20,509 bases of DNA from a virus. The translations under genes were made by a program, and so were the position numbers. The stretch lies in IMG/VR virus record IMGVR_UViG_3300005056_000223, positions 1 to 20,509 of that record; one strand, written 5' to 3'. Positions 1 to 8,057 of this stretch are shown here, in pieces. The notes beneath the pieces are model-generated. The model was not told the origin of the DNA. It saw nothing but the letters and a program-made list of their open reading frames with translations, and did no database searches. The first letter of the stretch is position 1, and every line of letters begins with the position of its first letter.

Positions 1-516
1 CTACTTGTAAATCGCGTCATAGGCCTGCTCGCAGGTCACTCCCCGGCTGTGGCTTTGATCAGCAAATCCTGCCAGGTCGCCCGCTCGCTGGTCAGCGCGC
101 TTGAGCACGTCGGCAAGCACCATGACGGCACGGGTAGCTGCCGCGCTTGCGGCGGCAGTGCAGGAATGGCTGCCGGCTTGACCGACTGCGAGTCGAGCGG
201 CAAGGTTGTCTGCCGCCCCGCGCAGGCTGTCAGCAGAAGCGCGAGCGGTAGCAGCATCACCAACCGCTTGATCGATCGCATGTTGTCCATCTTCCGTCAC
301 CTTGTCGAGTTTGAGTTGCCATGCTTGTTCTTTGTCGCGCGCGGCGGCCTCGTTAACGGCTTTTGCCGTAGCGTCATCCGTATCGCGGGCACTCCACTTG
401 GCCTGCCAGTCGTCATTTGTGACGGACACCCCATGGTGATAGGCGCCATACAGCACGCCCAGGGCCAGAAGCACCGCGGCTATATAAGGAATGGATTTCA
501 GCAGGATCGTGTTCAT
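1..516 (-). CDS. Rz-like i-spanin (inner-membrane lysis protein)
   Basis: This 171-residue protein has a short N-terminus, one transmembrane segment (about residues 9-25) and a long Ala/Asp/Glu/Gln-rich helical periplasmic domain, which is the layout of Rz or DUF2514-type i-spanins. Such proteins bind an outer-membrane lipoprotein partner and fuse the two membranes in the last step of lysis. Two cysteines in the C-terminal part (in SHSCTA and VTCEQA) could form disulfides. The gene overlaps the end of the endolysin gene by 4 nt and contains the o-spanin gene in another frame. The TAG stop lies exactly at the left edge, so the protein is complete. The assignment rests on topology, position and the nested partner, not on a catalytic motif. 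Confidence 0.85.
   Translation of the reverse strand: MNTILLKSIPYIAAVLLALGVLYGAYHHGVSVTNDDWQAKWSARDTDDATAKAVNEAAARDKEQAWQLKLDKVTEDGQHAIDQAVGDAATARASADSLRGAADNLAARLAVGQAGSHSCTAAASAAATRAVMVLADVLKRADQRAGDLAGFADQSHSRGVTCEQAYDAIYK
36..290 (-). CDS. Rz1-like o-spanin lipoprotein, nested in the Rz gene
   Basis: This 84-residue ORF lies entirely inside the i-spanin gene in a different frame. It has a basic start, a hydrophobic stretch and a clear lipobox, LLTAC followed by AG, with Cys23 as the predicted lipidated residue. The mature part is proline-rich (PAAIPALPPQARQLPVPS), as is typical of Rz1. The role is to sit in the outer membrane and pair with Rz across the periplasm. Two starts are possible. 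The ATG at 290 has AAGGTG 7 nt upstream. The ATG at 281 has GGAAG 9 nt upstream and would give 81 residues with Cys20. The fully embedded arrangement is the lambda-type one. Confidence 0.85.
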   Translation of the reverse strand: MDNMRSIKRLVMLLPLALLLTACAGRQTTLPLDSQSVKPAAIPALPPQARQLPVPSWCLPTCSSALTSERATWQDLLIKATAGE

Positions 517-1064
517 GCCAACACCTTCAGCGCAGTGTTGTAGAAGGCGACGCGCTCGGCCAAGCCGTTGATCCCACCATTGATGCGACGGGTGATCATC
601 TCGAACGAGCCAGAGTCAGCCAGTTTGTTCAGGTCGCGGGAGTTCCAGAACCAGGCCGCAGACTTAGCCGCCAACTCGGCCTGCTCCAATAGCTCTGGTG
701 TGCGTAGCAGGCGGTCGTCGCCGAACAGCGCCTTACTGCACGCCAGATAGTTGTCATGCCCTGTAATCTGGATCAGCCCGCGCCCGCGGTACTTCTGCCC
801 GTCACCGTCGGCCTCTGGTGTATTGCCCAGCCGCTTCGCCAGGGTGCCAGTGTCGTACTTGCTCAGGTACTGATCGCCGCCCAGCTCGCGCACATACAGG
901 AACTGGCCCGACTCATGGCCGACCTGGGCGATAAACGCCGCCATCCGGAGCTTGGTGTTGATCTGGTACCGCTGCATGGCCAGGTTCAGCGCAGATGCAA
1001 AAACACCGGCATTGCGGCCGGCGTTCGGGGTGATCTGCAGCAGTTGCTGTGCTGTGATTGGCAT
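513..1064 (-). CDS. GH19 (chitinase-like) endolysin
   Basis: This 183-residue muralytic enzyme belongs to the glycoside hydrolase 19 family, which many Pseudomonas phages use as endolysin to cut the glycan strands of peptidoglycan. Visible family signatures are VGHESGQF with the probable catalytic Glu51, a second acidic candidate at Glu60 (VRELGG), YRGRGLIQITG at 92-102, and TRRINGG at 158-164. No signal peptide or membrane anchor is present, so export needs a holin or similar factor. The gene overlaps the i-spanin start by 4 nt and follows the membrane-protein gene by one base, forming a compact lysis cassette. Length and motifs suggest a single-domain, complete enzyme. Confidence 0.93.
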   Translation of the reverse strand: MPITAQQLLQITPNAGRNAGVFASALNLAMQRYQINTKLRMAAFIAQVGHESGQFLYVRELGGDQYLSKYDTGTLAKRLGNTPEADGDGQKYRGRGLIQITGHDNYLACSKALFGDDRLLRTPELLEQAELAAKSAAWFWNSRDLNKLADSGSFEMITRRINGGINGLAERVAFYNTALKVLA

Positions 1065-1065
1065 G

Positions 1066-1647
1066 TCAGATCGCCTTGTAGAAGTTGATTTTCGTGGTCA
1101 TGCCTACAGGCTCGCCGTCCGTTCCGGCGTCGTCCGGCTGCACCTTGAAGCCCAGGCGTATTACAAAGGCCCGCGTCTCGCTCCACTGGTGCACCAGATA
1201 GAACCCATACCAGTGCTTCCCACTGTTCTCGGTAGTCACAAACTGCCAGCCAGCCTCGCCTGGGTGATCGCGGACGGTGTAGTCGCCGACATAGGTGATC
1301 GTGCTGCCCTTTATCGGCGCCTGCCACAGCTTGACGAACCGCATGTTGTTGACCGGGTTCCGTACCGCAGCCCACCACCACATCGCCATGAACGAGTCGA
1401 CCTTCCAGCCGAAAGGGGTGTTCTCAGCCCACCAGCCGCGCCGATCACCCTGAAGGCCGTCGTAGTCATTACCGAACAGCCATGCCCAGCGCGGAAGGCT
1501 CACGATTGCGCGGCCATCACTCTTGCTGATGTCGTCAACCCTGAACGGGATAGCGGCTGCGACCACAAGCAGGCCGACTAGGTCGGTGACAATATTGCAG
1601 GCAAGCAAAAACACCCACTGGCATATCGCCCTTGAGATTTTGAGCAT
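1066..1647 (-). CDS. Phage protein of unknown function with N-terminal membrane segment
   Basis: I take the ATG at 1647 as the start because GGAG lies 6 nt before it; TTG at 1659 and ATG at 1653 are possible but worse placed. The protein is then 193 residues. Residues about 9-36 are hydrophobic and could cross the membrane once, or twice as a short hairpin. The rest is soluble and rich in Trp (for example WWAENTPFGW and MAMWWWAAV). It resembles proteins found beside endolysins in Pseudomonas phages, possibly the DUF7338 group, but I do not know their function. It is the first gene after an AT-rich gap and directly precedes the endolysin. A lysis-accessory or holin-like role is conceivable by position only. 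Confidence 0.75.
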   Translation of the reverse strand: MLKISRAICQWVFLLACNIVTDLVGLLVVAAAIPFRVDDISKSDGRAIVSLPRWAWLFGNDYDGLQGDRRGWWAENTPFGWKVDSFMAMWWWAAVRNPVNNMRFVKLWQAPIKGSTITYVGDYTVRDHPGEAGWQFVTTENSGKHWYGFYLVHQWSETRAFVIRLGFKVQPDDAGTDGEPVGMTTKINFYKAI

Positions 1648-1659
1648 GGTCATCTCCAA

Positions 1660-5033: not shown

Positions 5034-5376
5034 TCAGTGTTACCTCTTCCAGGCCGAACTCAGTGAGAATCCCAGCGGTTACGCTGTAGGTACGGTTGTT
5101 GATGTTGAAGTCGGCGGAGAAGCTGGTGAGCCGGATCACGCCGGGGGTGTTGGCGATTCGCGCCCTGAGGGCTGCCTCGGCAGTAGACAGGCTGGTGAAC
5201 TTCCCAAGGATCTGTTCGTACCACGGCGTGCCGTCGGTGATGTCTCGGAAGTACTCGCCCAGGAACAGGCGAAGCCGGGTCAGCACGGTCTGTGCAACCT
5301 CGGACTGTCCGGTGATGAACTGTTGCCCGCGCGTCACGATGTCGCCTGTTTCGTCGTCCAGCCTGCGTACTGTCAT
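5026..5376 (-). CDS. gp25-like (P2 W-type) baseplate wedge protein
   Basis: The protein has 116 residues, the usual size for gp25/W-like wedge subunits. Family-like features are TRGQQFITGQSEVAQTVLTR, the central LRLFLGEYFRDITDGTPWYEQILGK (charged Glu/Arg pair and GTPWY), then ALRARIANTPGVIRL, with a beta-rich end. In T4 gp25 and its relatives such a subunit contacts the first sheath ring and nucleates sheath polymerisation. It overlaps the spike gene by ATGA upstream and the J gene by 8 nt downstream, placing it in the spike-W-J order known from P2-like and T4-like baseplates. Confidence 0.85.
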   Translation of the reverse strand: MTVRRLDDETGDIVTRGQQFITGQSEVAQTVLTRLRLFLGEYFRDITDGTPWYEQILGKFTSLSTAEAALRARIANTPGVIRLTSFSADFNINNRTYSVTAGILTEFGLEEVTLNG

Positions 5377-6080
5377 GGAACTGGAACTCCGCTTGTCCCG
5401 GAGCCCGGGGTTACACCGCCATGGCGATGCGTATTGAGGTTTGTGCCGGCGGCGGTGATGACGTTTCCGTCCGGCGTTATCTTCAGCCCGTTAATCAGGA
5501 AGGTGCCGTCTGCCTGCAACTGAAAGCTGCCCGCGCCGTTCTGCATCAGGGTTGTGCCGTCGGCCAGTACGTTGAACCTGGCCACCCCGTTGTCCATGGA
5601 GATGCTGTTGTCGTTCTTCAGCCAGACGAATTGGGTGCCAGCCTTGTTGCGCATGCGAACGCCGTTATTCTGGAAGTCCGGCAGCGCGTTGGGCTGCGAC
5701 CTGAACCCAGGCAGGAACATGGCGTCCTGCATGTTGTGGAAGCGCCCGATTGGGTTTTCCGCCACCCCGCCGCTCTGCACCCACCCATCAATGCAGCGCT
5801 GAGAGAACAGGATGTCCCCCTCACAACCAGCATCGATCTGGTACTCGACGCAGTAGTCACCGCCGGGGAAGTAGACCGGAACCTCGATGATTGGAGGTAT
5901 CGTGAACTCGGCACCGTTGATGTCGACCCTCAATATCCCTGGCTGCACCTGGGCAAGCTGCGTGACTGGGTCGAAGGTCCTGACGTGCCCGGGCAGCGAA
6001 GTGCAAACACCTTTCATCACCTCACGAAAGGCGTCGCGCATCATCTTGGCCTGCTTAGTGCGGCCTTCTTGTTTGAGCAT
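5373..6080 (-). CDS. gp138/V-like membrane-puncturing spike protein
   Basis: This 235-residue protein has an N-terminal OB-fold-like part (about residues 20-105, with THEVRTFDP-type strands, IPPIIEVPVYFPGG and GDILFSQRCIDGW). A middle linker follows (FHNMQDAMFLPGF). The C-terminal half of short repeated beta strands (FNVLADGTTLMQNGAGSF, LQADGTFLINGLKITPDG) resembles a triple-stranded needle. It ends near THRHGG, with His218 and His220 forming the H-x-H that binds an iron ion at the tip of known phage spikes. GGGAG lies 6 nt before the ATG. The gene directly follows a strong terminator and has only about 35 nt of leader, so its mRNA probably comes from readthrough of upstream transcription. 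Confidence 0.88.
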   Translation of the reverse strand: MLKQEGRTKQAKMMRDAFREVMKGVCTSLPGHVRTFDPVTQLAQVQPGILRVDINGAEFTIPPIIEVPVYFPGGDYCVEYQIDAGCEGDILFSQRCIDGWVQSGGVAENPIGRFHNMQDAMFLPGFRSQPNALPDFQNNGVRMRNKAGTQFVWLKNDNSISMDNGVARFNVLADGTTLMQNGAGSFQLQADGTFLINGLKITPDGNVITAAGTNLNTHRHGGVTPGSGTSGVPVP

Positions 6081-6109: not shown

Positions 6110-6132
6110 AAAAAACCCGCCGAAGCGGGGTT
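6110..6132 (-). terminator. Strong intrinsic terminator after the exported-protein gene
   Basis: On the minus strand the sequence reads CCCGC, TTCG loop, GCGGG, then six T before A. The UUCG-type tetraloop on a GC stem and the T-run form a textbook rho-independent terminator. It lies about 28 nt past the stop of the 6160-6567 gene and about 30 nt before the spike ATG. On the plus strand the hairpin lacks a continuous T-run, so it works mainly for minus-strand transcription. Confidence 0.85.
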
Positions 6133-6159
6133 GTTAAATTTCGTGATGCTGGTTCTGTT

Positions 6160-6567
6160 TTATCTGACGCTTCCGAACCCGTCGGTCAGCACGCCTTTTT
6201 GGCTGTACTGACTGCTGATCAGCTTGCCAATCTTGGCGTCTACCTGACGCAGGCTGGACAACATTCCTTTGGTAGGTCCGCCACTCAGCGATTTGCATCC
6301 CATGCGCGCCAGGTAAAGGTCATGCTCTCGAATCGACACGGACATAGCGTTGTAAATCTCCATGTTCCTTGACCTTAGAGCCAGCGTAACGGCGCCTGCA
6401 CCATATAACGGATCATTGGCCACATTCACGACGCCAGAACCAGAGCTAAGCGCGGTGTCGACATAGTTGTACATCTGCCGACCATCGCACTGGCCGCCAT
6501 CATCAGCCAGCGCGATGAATGGCAGCATTGCTGCTGCGGTGAGGATAACCAGACTTGTCTTCAACAT
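6160..6567 (-). CDS. Small exported protein of unknown function (candidate moron)
   Basis: This 135-residue protein has a clear Sec signal peptide: MLKTS, a hydrophobic core to about residue 20, and a likely cleavage ALA before DDGGQ. The mature protein (about 114 residues) would be periplasmic. It has two cysteines (Cys27 and Cys91) that could pair, and no recognisable enzymatic motif. It interrupts the baseplate genes between hub and spike, where no structural gene of this kind is expected. It has a 74-nt non-coding leader, no strong ribosome site (CCCTTAA precedes the ATG), and a dedicated terminator behind it. GC looks lower than its neighbours. Possible roles are superinfection exclusion, host-surface modification or another lysogeny-expressed function, or a virion-exit factor. 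None of these is shown by the sequence. Confidence 0.8.
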   Translation of the reverse strand: MLKTSLVILTAAAMLPFIALADDGGQCDGRQMYNYVDTALSSGSGVVNVANDPLYGAGAVTLALRSRNMEIYNAMSVSIREHDLYLARMGCKSLSGGPTKGMLSSLRQVDAKIGKLISSQYSQKGVLTDGFGSVR

Positions 6568-6641
6568 TTAAGGGCACCAGCGAGGCTTTGGGTATTGCTC
6601 GGAAATGTAGCAGATCGCCAGCGCAAGTCATTGACCAGTCG
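6568..6641 (-). promoter_or_regulatory. Leader of the exported-protein gene with weak promoter candidate
   Basis: This 74-nt gap between the hub stop and the ATG at 6567 is unusually long for this tightly packed operon. Read on the minus strand it contains TGCTACATT, which fits an extended -10 (TG-n-TACATT, 4 of 6 to TATAAT). No convincing -35 stands at the right distance. If real, it would give the exported gene its own transcript. The evidence is weak. Confidence 0.25.
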
Positions 6642-8057
6642 TCATCGCACGAACTGCTGACCGCGCATGTAGGAAGTGTTGACGGAGGCGACGGCCTCGC
6701 CACGGGTAATTACCCCGTTACGGTTTATGTCCAGGCCGGAGTTGGCCGCGTACTCGCGCTGGTAGGGGCCAGTGTCGCGCTCCCACATCACGTATGAGTC
6801 TGGGCGCCCTACCGCTGCCGGCCATAGAACGGCCAGGTAGGCGTCTCCCAAGTTGCGGATGCGACCTGAGTAGGGCTTGTAGTAGGCCTCCACGTAATCG
6901 AGTTGGCGCACAGCGGTCATGCGTGCGAGCTGAGCAGTGGATGTACCAACCTCGCGCGCAGACGCCTCCAGGAACTGAATAAGGCCCGTTGCTGTACTGC
7001 CTGGGTTCCGCGCTGCTGGACTGAACGTGTAACCAGTCTCGAAGCCCATCACGGCCATGAGCCAGTTGGGATCGAACGACATCCGTTCGCATATCTCACG
7101 CACCTTCACCCGGAACGCCTGGTCGACCCTGGCTCCCCAGATCAGCTTTCCGTTTTGCTGGGTTGCGATCTCGGTAGCTGCTGGCGCGGTACCGGCGCGC
7201 AGGCCGTCGATCTCGGTTCGCCACAGGTCGCTGTGCGAATCGCCTGAATGCTTCATCGCGAAGATGTTGTATTCGCCATTTGCGGTCGCGTCACCACTGA
7301 GCTCAGAGATGAACAAATTCCCGGTATTGAAGGTGGCAAACTCGCTTTCTACATTTATCCTTCCGTTGATTCGTAGTGCGGGATTGAGCTGCACGGCCAC
7401 GAATACGCCAAGGCCGTCAGGCCCGCGGGAAACCTCTGGGATGCCGATCATTCCGCTGAACTGATCAACTCTCACCATCGTGGTGGTGCGCGGCATGTTC
7501 GGCTTGGTAACGACGATGCGCCCGCGATCCTGCATCCATTCAAATTTGTAGGCGTATGCCAGTTCGGTCATTGCTTTCGGGATGTCTCCGTCAACCACGA
7601 GGCCCGAAGAAAGCGGCCTGGCGTCGGCAAACTGAGCGTTGTCGATATCGATTGGAAGCGGCCATGCCGCGGCAAGAGCGCGAATGACTTCCTCTACCCT
7701 GGTGCCGATGCCAAATGAAAGCTGGGCAGACGCCCGATCGGTGGCCGGCTGCCCAGACCTGCAGATCAGTCTTGTGATGATCTCTGGTGAGCCTGGCTCG
7801 CGCTCGCGCAAGGTGTTGGTCACGAAGCCTGTAAAAATCGCGTCTACGTTGTCGTTGTACCCAGCGCGAAGCACGATGCTCGAGCGCTGGGCGATGGCTG
7901 AGCCCTTGTTCATGTTGTAGAGGCGGATGTCGGCGAACGACAGCGCGTCACCGGGAGAGATATCAATGTTGAACTGGATGCGGAACTGCCGGCGACCGGA
8001 CTGGAGCCCAATGTACGGCTGGCCGTTCACGTCAATCGACCAAACACGCTCTCTCAT
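6642..8057 (-). CDS. Baseplate hub fused to a lytic transglycosylase with EF-hand-like tail
   Basis: The 471-residue protein appears to have three parts. Residues 1 to about 300 look like a gp27/gpD-type hub: IDVNGQPYIG start, FADIRLYN, AIFTGFVTNTLREREPG, and the LAYAYKFEWMQDRGRIVVTKP segment. Residues about 308-430 form an SLT-type transglycosylase: SFDPNWLMAVMGFETGYTF with probable catalytic Glu340, then TGLIQFLEASA at 357-367 and AYLAVLWPAAVGRP at 406-419. Near the end, D443-I-N-R-N-G-V-I-T-R-G-E454 matches a 12-residue EF-hand calcium loop. The enzyme would open peptidoglycan locally during DNA injection. Its ATG overlaps the plug gene stop (ATGA). Confidence 0.87.
   Translation of the reverse strand: MRERVWSIDVNGQPYIGLQSGRRQFRIQFNIDISPGDALSFADIRLYNMNKGSAIAQRSSIVLRAGYNDNVDAIFTGFVTNTLREREPGSPEIITRLICRSGQPATDRASAQLSFGIGTRVEEVIRALAAAWPLPIDIDNAQFADARPLSSGLVVDGDIPKAMTELAYAYKFEWMQDRGRIVVTKPNMPRTTTMVRVDQFSGMIGIPEVSRGPDGLGVFVAVQLNPALRINGRINVESEFATFNTGNLFISELSGDATANGEYNIFAMKHSGDSHSDLWRTEIDGLRAGTAPAATEIATQQNGKLIWGARVDQAFRVKVREICERMSFDPNWLMAVMGFETGYTFSPAARNPGSTATGLIQFLEASAREVGTSTAQLARMTAVRQLDYVEAYYKPYSGRIRNLGDAYLAVLWPAAVGRPDSYVMWERDTGPYQREYAANSGLDINRNGVITRGEAVASVNTSYMRGQQFVR

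What the first reader, a model, noticed from the sequence alone, without database searches (positions are those of the whole stretch)
6110..6641. Candidate moron: exported small protein with its own terminator inside the baseplate operon
Between the hub and the spike, normally adjacent, sits a 135-residue Sec-exported protein with two cysteines and no known domain. It is framed by a 74-nt leader (possible extended -10) and a strong minus-strand terminator. This is the layout of a moron: an independently transcribed gene added to a phage. Exported moron products often alter host envelope or block superinfection. This is the best candidate here for an undescribed function.
Basis: partly seen in the sequence, partly recalled or inferred. 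Interest (0 to 1): 0.65.

Follow-up and report, generated by a model that had tools for sequence, protein, structure and literature searches.

The report
Exported-protein moron in phage tail operon
Between two tail-tip genes of a Pseudomonas prophage sits an interchangeable add-on gene with its own switch-on and switch-off signals; it makes a small secreted helical protein that most likely helps an infected cell keep out further phages, although that role is inferred and untested.

Summary
A 135-aa signal-peptide protein (6160-6567, minus strand) lies between the baseplate hub and spike genes, behind a 74-nt leader and before an intrinsic terminator. Comparison with about 40 relatives strongly supports the moron reading. 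In close relatives this junction is either empty (6-59 nt), or holds relatives of this gene, or holds one of at least three unrelated, mostly exported proteins. The cassettes share an extended -10 motif TGNTACATT (20 of 21 cargo leaders, 0 of 16 empty junctions) and a terminator CCCGCNNCGGCGGGTTTTTT (21 of 21, 0 of 16), although coding sequences are unrelated. The slot changes content at least 13 times on the hub tree. Mature protein: dN/dS about 0.09, predicted four-helix bundle (pLDDT 84), no match in Pfam, PHROGs, NCBIfam, PADLOC, PDB or BFVD. The neighbouring hub ends in a lytic transglycosylase domain. An exported homolog of one alternative cargo occurs in Klebsiella jedunaviruses behind a near-consensus sigma-70 promoter, which favours an infection-time role. 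Best explanation: a periplasmic superinfection-exclusion moron, possibly inhibiting the tail transglycosylase as T4 Spackle inhibits gp5 lysozyme. The cassette is shown by comparison; the function is inferred.

The parts
6160..6567 (-). gene X: 135-aa exported protein (cargo family A)
   Evidence: ORF; 12 aligned sequences, mature part dN/dS 0.094
6505..6567 (-). signal peptide, residues 1-21, AxA cleavage
   Evidence: rule-based scan; divergent in sequence (dN/dS 0.62) but always hydrophobic
6163..6504 (-). mature protein, 114 residues, predicted four-helix bundle, Cys at mature 6 and 70
   Evidence: AlphaFold2 pLDDT 84.4, pTM 0.74
6604..6612 (-). extended -10 promoter motif TGCTACATT
   Evidence: conserved in 20 of 21 cargo leaders of three unrelated cargo families, 0 of 16 empty sites
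6568..6641 (-). leader between hub stop and X start
   Evidence: sequence; aligned leaders
6110..6130 (-). intrinsic terminator CCCCGCTTCGGCGGGTTTTTT
   Evidence: the core is present behind all 21 A/B/C cargo genes tested and the L101 cargo, absent from 16 empty junctions
6642..8057 (-). baseplate hub, upstream flank of the slot
   Evidence: PHROG 196 E 5.5e-126; Pfam E217_GP41
6642..7157 (-). lytic transglycosylase (SLT) domain at the hub C-terminus, putative target
   Evidence: phmmer to PDB 9udh_A 'lytic transglycosidase' E 3.6e-48; E340 invariant in nine aligned hubs
5373..6080 (-). baseplate spike, downstream flank of the slot
   Evidence: Pfam PF18352 and Apex

Best explanation
Gene X is the cargo of a moron cassette inserted at the hub-spike junction of a temperate Pseudomonas myovirus-type phage. 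[Shown by comparison] The cassette is an extended -10 promoter motif, one exported-protein gene and an intrinsic terminator, and it is gained, lost and exchanged as a unit. [Inferred] The host RNA polymerase transcribes it from the prophage and soon after infection, independently of the late operon, while late transcripts must pass through its terminator because only about 29 nt separate it from the spike start codon. [Inferred] The protein is exported by Sec, folds as a small, probably disulfide-bonded helical bundle in the periplasm, and excludes superinfecting phages at the envelope-crossing step. The most economical target is the lytic transglycosylase domain of the hub encoded next door, by analogy with T4 Spackle and gp5 lysozyme; this last step is the weakest.
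For: Polymorphic slot with empty, X-bearing and differently loaded sites in close relatives; shared promoter and terminator motifs across unrelated cargo, found only in the slot in 28 loci; at least 13 changes of slot content on the hub tree, 10 between empty and cargo; cargo families A, B and C unrelated by hhalign, yet with signal peptides or lipoboxes, except that the L109 relative of family B has a zinc-ribbon and transmembrane N-terminus instead; mature X under strong purifying selection with a freely changing signal peptide; G+C of X 54% against 59-60% for its neighbours; integrases 8-9 kb from the hub in four Pseudomonas genomes and on the same contig in a fifth; helical bundle with two invariant cysteines, which resembles how Spackle is described (PMC7677548); lytic transglycosylase domain in the adjacent hub; a homolog of cargo family C, exported and on its own near-consensus promoter (TTGACG-17-TATAGT) with its own terminator, in Klebsiella jedunaviruses with a homologous hub, where a benefit to a lysogen alone would make little sense; small exclusion lipoprotein encoded next to the receptor-binding gene in T5 (PMC9586334).
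Against: No experiment links X to exclusion. X has no sequence or fold match to Spackle or to any known exclusion protein. X divergence tracks the transglycosylase domain only slightly better (r 0.59) than other tail genes (0.50 for the hub N-terminus), which adjacency alone could explain. Close relatives without X keep an equally intact hub, so X is not required with that enzyme. The link to the Klebsiella gene goes through a different cargo family.
Confidence: 0.5

Rival explanations
1. X is a moron for lysogenic conversion unrelated to phage exclusion: a periplasmic protein that changes envelope stress, adhesion, motility or survival of the host.
For: Temperate phage with nearby integrase; independent promoter and terminator fit expression from a prophage; morons of P. 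aeruginosa phages affect diverse phenotypes (cited in PMC7067206).
Against: A homolog of alternative cargo C is kept in 67 phage records, mostly Klebsiella phages of the Jedunavirus type, where benefit to a lysogen should not apply; the slot lies beside the cell-wall-piercing tail genes; no match to any known host-modifying family.
Confidence: 0.28
2. X acts in lysis timing, for instance as a periplasmic antiholin or inhibitor of the phage endolysin (T4 RI-like).
For: Small exported helical protein with two cysteines in the late region; T4 RI also has a cleavable signal peptide (title of a reference listed in PMC9902359).
Against: Lies about 5 kb from the lysis genes of the window (1-1064) and swaps independently of them; its own promoter would express it without the holin; no similarity to RI in Pfam or PHROGs.
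Confidence: 0.08
3. X is a structural or assembly factor of the baseplate, placed between hub and spike because it joins them.
For: Position between two interacting tail proteins; probably also expressed with the late operon by read-through.
Against: Missing from about half of close relatives with well conserved hub and spike; replaced by unrelated proteins; has a cleavable signal peptide; own promoter and terminator motifs.
Confidence: 0.04
4. X is a decaying or chance ORF, with a terminator that belongs to the phage operon.
For: No database family.
Against: dN/dS 0.094 in the mature part over divergent relatives, 57 invariant columns; the terminator is absent from empty sites.
Confidence: 0.01

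Closest known systems
Phage morons (HK97 gp15, lambda-type morons, Tab of Pseudomonas phage JBD26)
   Same: Extra gene between genes that are adjacent in relatives, own promoter and terminator, different base composition, interchangeable
   Different: Known examples lie at other places and encode other proteins; here one slot carries at least four unrelated, mostly exported families behind one shared promoter and terminator type
T4 Spackle (gp61.3)
   Same: Small Sec-exported helical protein with two cysteines; phage with a tail-borne cell-wall hydrolase
   Different: No sequence or fold match found; Spackle is a T4 early gene and inhibits a lysozyme, not a lytic transglycosylase; X is encoded beside its putative target
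T5 Llp and Cor lipoproteins
   Same: Small exported exclusion protein encoded next to a tail-tip gene; some family C cargo here have lipoboxes
   Different: X has no lipobox, is larger and has no similarity; Llp blocks the outer-membrane receptor FhuA
Klebsiella phage JD001 gp07 and its jedunavirus relatives (unnamed family)
   Same: Exported protein as an independent unit in a phage with a homologous hub; homolog of alternative slot cargo C
   Different: Not homologous to X; located on the opposite strand about 2.5 kb from the hub, not in the hub-spike slot

Membership tests
Phage moron | Gene lies between two genes that are adjacent in related phages | tested here: met
   Empty junctions of 6-59 nt in close relatives; overlap in phiPLPE and CASP1
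Phage moron | Own promoter | tested here: met
   TGNTA[ACG]A[TG]T in 20 of 21 cargo leaders, 0 of 16 empty sites; sequence evidence only, transcript start not mapped
Phage moron | Own rho-independent terminator | tested here: met
   21 of 21 cargo sites, 0 of 16 empty
Phage moron | Base composition differs from flanks | tested here: met
   X 54.2% G+C, hub 59.3%, spike 59.7%; 49-58% in relatives, a modest difference
Phage moron | Expressed from the prophage and benefits the host | not testable with these tools
   Needs RNA and phenotype data
T4 Spackle family | Sequence or fold homology to gp61.3 | tested here: not met
   No credible PDB sequence hit with A1 or A5; no Foldseek hit at E <= 0.001, and no Spackle entry among the 50 rows shown
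T4 Spackle family | Sec-exported, helical, disulfide-bonded | tested here: inconclusive
   Signal peptide and four-helix prediction with two invariant Cys agree; the disulfide itself is not shown
T4 Spackle family | Inhibits the phage's tail cell-wall hydrolase | not testable with these tools
   The hub does carry a lytic transglycosylase domain
Llp/Cor exclusion lipoproteins | Lipobox and lipid anchor | tested here: not met
   No lipobox in any family A member

The most novel reading that the evidence does not exclude
The hub-spike junction is a dedicated exchange site for exclusion proteins: a standard promoter and terminator frame into which unrelated periplasmic inhibitors of the neighbouring tail transglycosylase (or of other envelope-crossing steps) are swapped, so that X founds a new family of phage-encoded inhibitors of lytic transglycosylases.
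Probability: 0.2. Interest if true: 0.75.

Novelty: new member of a known kind. Interest (0 to 1): 0.5.

Why it matters
It gives a clear, comparison-based case of a moron slot in a tail operon, with sequence signatures (TGNTACATT and CCCGCNNCGGCGGGTTTTTT) that allow further cargo genes to be found by pattern alone. The cargo families seen are mostly exported proteins of unknown function, so the slot is a short list of candidate envelope-level exclusion proteins in Pseudomonas, and the linked transglycosylase makes one mechanism directly testable.

Tried and rejected
Full-length AlphaFold2 with signal peptide gave pLDDT 45 and was not used; the mature form gave 84. Fold searches in PDB and BFVD gave nothing at E <= 0.001. 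Pfam, PHROGs, NCBIfam and PADLOC gave only chance-level hits for X. tblastn of X in 50,697 phage records: none. X in Pseudomonas genomes: 1 of 400; in the class: the same one genome of 369, so no sign of a common host gene as its source. Tested whether the transglycosylase part of the hub alone changes with cargo type: no, hubs of the lineage that carries most family C cargo diverge along their whole length. Tested whether cargo families A, B and C are remote homologs: no. Searched the literature for an exclusion study in Jedunavirus and for a moron described at this junction: none found in the open library, which lacks most subscription papers.

Full report
What is there. The window is a 20.5 kb virus record holding, on the minus strand, the head, tail and lysis genes of a myovirus-type phage. 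The gene in question (X, 6160-6567) encodes 135 residues with a standard signal peptide and a 114-residue mature part with two cysteines. It is flanked by the baseplate hub (6642-8057) and the spike (5373-6080). The 74-nt leader contains TGCTACATT at 6604-6612 and the gene is followed by a hairpin with six T at 6110-6130.

Relatives. Patterns from X, hub and spike brought in about 40 distinct loci from virus contigs and Pseudomonas genomes. Junctions fall into classes: empty, with 6-59 nt between hub and spike (17 loci with hub at least 73% identical); family A, relatives of X (62-100% identical); family B (156-161 aa, and a 242-aa relative with a zinc-ribbon and transmembrane N-terminus in L109); family C (202 to about 250 aa from the likely starts, a shared C-terminal domain with Sec or lipoprotein signals and variable N-terminal parts); and a fourth cargo in L101 (148 aa, PHROG 22446). 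Profile comparison shows A, B and C to be unrelated. The window's hub is 96% identical to that of an empty-site relative (L011).

Cassette. In the leaders of 21 cargo loci the only strongly conserved block is cTGNTACATT: 20 of 21 match TGNTA[ACG]A[TG]T, against 0.2 expected from shuffled leaders and none in 16 empty junctions; L031 lacks it. The terminator CCCGCNNCGGCGGGTTTTTT is behind all 21 and in none of the empty junctions. In 28 loci of about 5-10 kb, every exact hit of both motifs lies in the slot. The L101 cargo has CTGATACAGT upstream and the same terminator downstream. The loci are related, so the counts are not independent, but the coding sequences between the two motifs are unrelated and the rest of the leaders has diverged, so the motifs are kept by selection or move with the cargo. 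The hub tree needs at least 13 changes of slot content and 10 between empty and filled.

A real protein. Across carriers the mature part has median dN/dS 0.094, similar to the spike (0.097), while the signal peptide has 0.62. The mature form is predicted with good confidence as a four-helix bundle with a small strand pair (pLDDT 84.4, pTM 0.74; the best two of five models scored 84, the other three 43-47), the two cysteines lying in or next to the two strands. No fold match was found.

Lifestyle. Integrase genes lie 8-9 kb from the hub in four Pseudomonas genomes and on the same contig in a fifth, and hubs of this type sit in chromosome-sized contigs, so the group is temperate.

Mechanism. The moron architecture is established by comparison. 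What the protein does is inferred from four facts: it is exported; its slot partners are also mostly exported and unrelated; the adjacent hub ends in a lytic transglycosylase domain (PDB 9udh_A, E 3.6e-48) that should act in the periplasm during entry; and Klebsiella jedunaviruses with a homologous hub carry an exported homolog of cargo C as a separate unit behind TTGACG-17-TATAGT and before a terminator. That jedunaviruses are lytic is from general knowledge, not tested here. T4 Spackle (PMC7677548) and T5 Llp (PMC9586334) are precedents for small periplasmic exclusion proteins. Superinfection exclusion is therefore the best single explanation (about 0.5), with the transglycosylase as the most economical target (about 0.2). 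Other lysogenic conversion remains a serious rival.

Late transcription. Only about 29 nt separate the terminator from the spike start codon, with no room for a second promoter, so spike and wedge genes must be reached by read-through or antitermination of late transcripts (inference).

Known or new. As a moron it is a member of a known kind: criteria used in the literature (sigma-70 promoter, rho-independent terminator, different G+C; PMC5567305) are met at sequence level. The protein family, the slot and its shared promoter-terminator frame were not found described in the papers held.

Noticed in passing
L100 3417-3923, L102 3396-3923, L113 3420-3923; L101 2177-3286 (-): In the diverged hub lineage the slot also holds, next to the exported cargo, genes that look by eye like KilA-N or Bro-N antirepressor-type proteins; not scanned.
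   Followed up: no
L118 4441-5001 (JD001 gp07) and 67 phage records: Exported protein on the strand opposite to the tail genes of Klebsiella jedunaviruses, with near-consensus sigma-70 promoter and own terminator; homolog of slot cargo C and so far called hypothetical.
   Followed up: partly
L007 7612-8820 and L008 same place: A second variable place in the tail operon: a 402-aa tail-fibre-like gene lies between the baseplate wedge and the gpI-like gene, which overlap in the window.
   Followed up: no
L057 4460-4867 (phage vB_KsaM-C1): A more distant phage carries yet another exported 135-aa protein directly after its hub gene, without the promoter motif.
   Followed up: partly
window 1-516 and 36-290 (-): Nested lysis genes of the Rz/Rz1 type by appearance (lipobox LTAC in the inner frame), next to a GH19-type endolysin at 513-1064 (Pfam PF00182).
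   Followed up: partly
window 1066-1659 (-): DUF7338 protein (Pfam PF24027, E 1.7e-29) between the endolysin and the tail fibre region.
   Followed up: no
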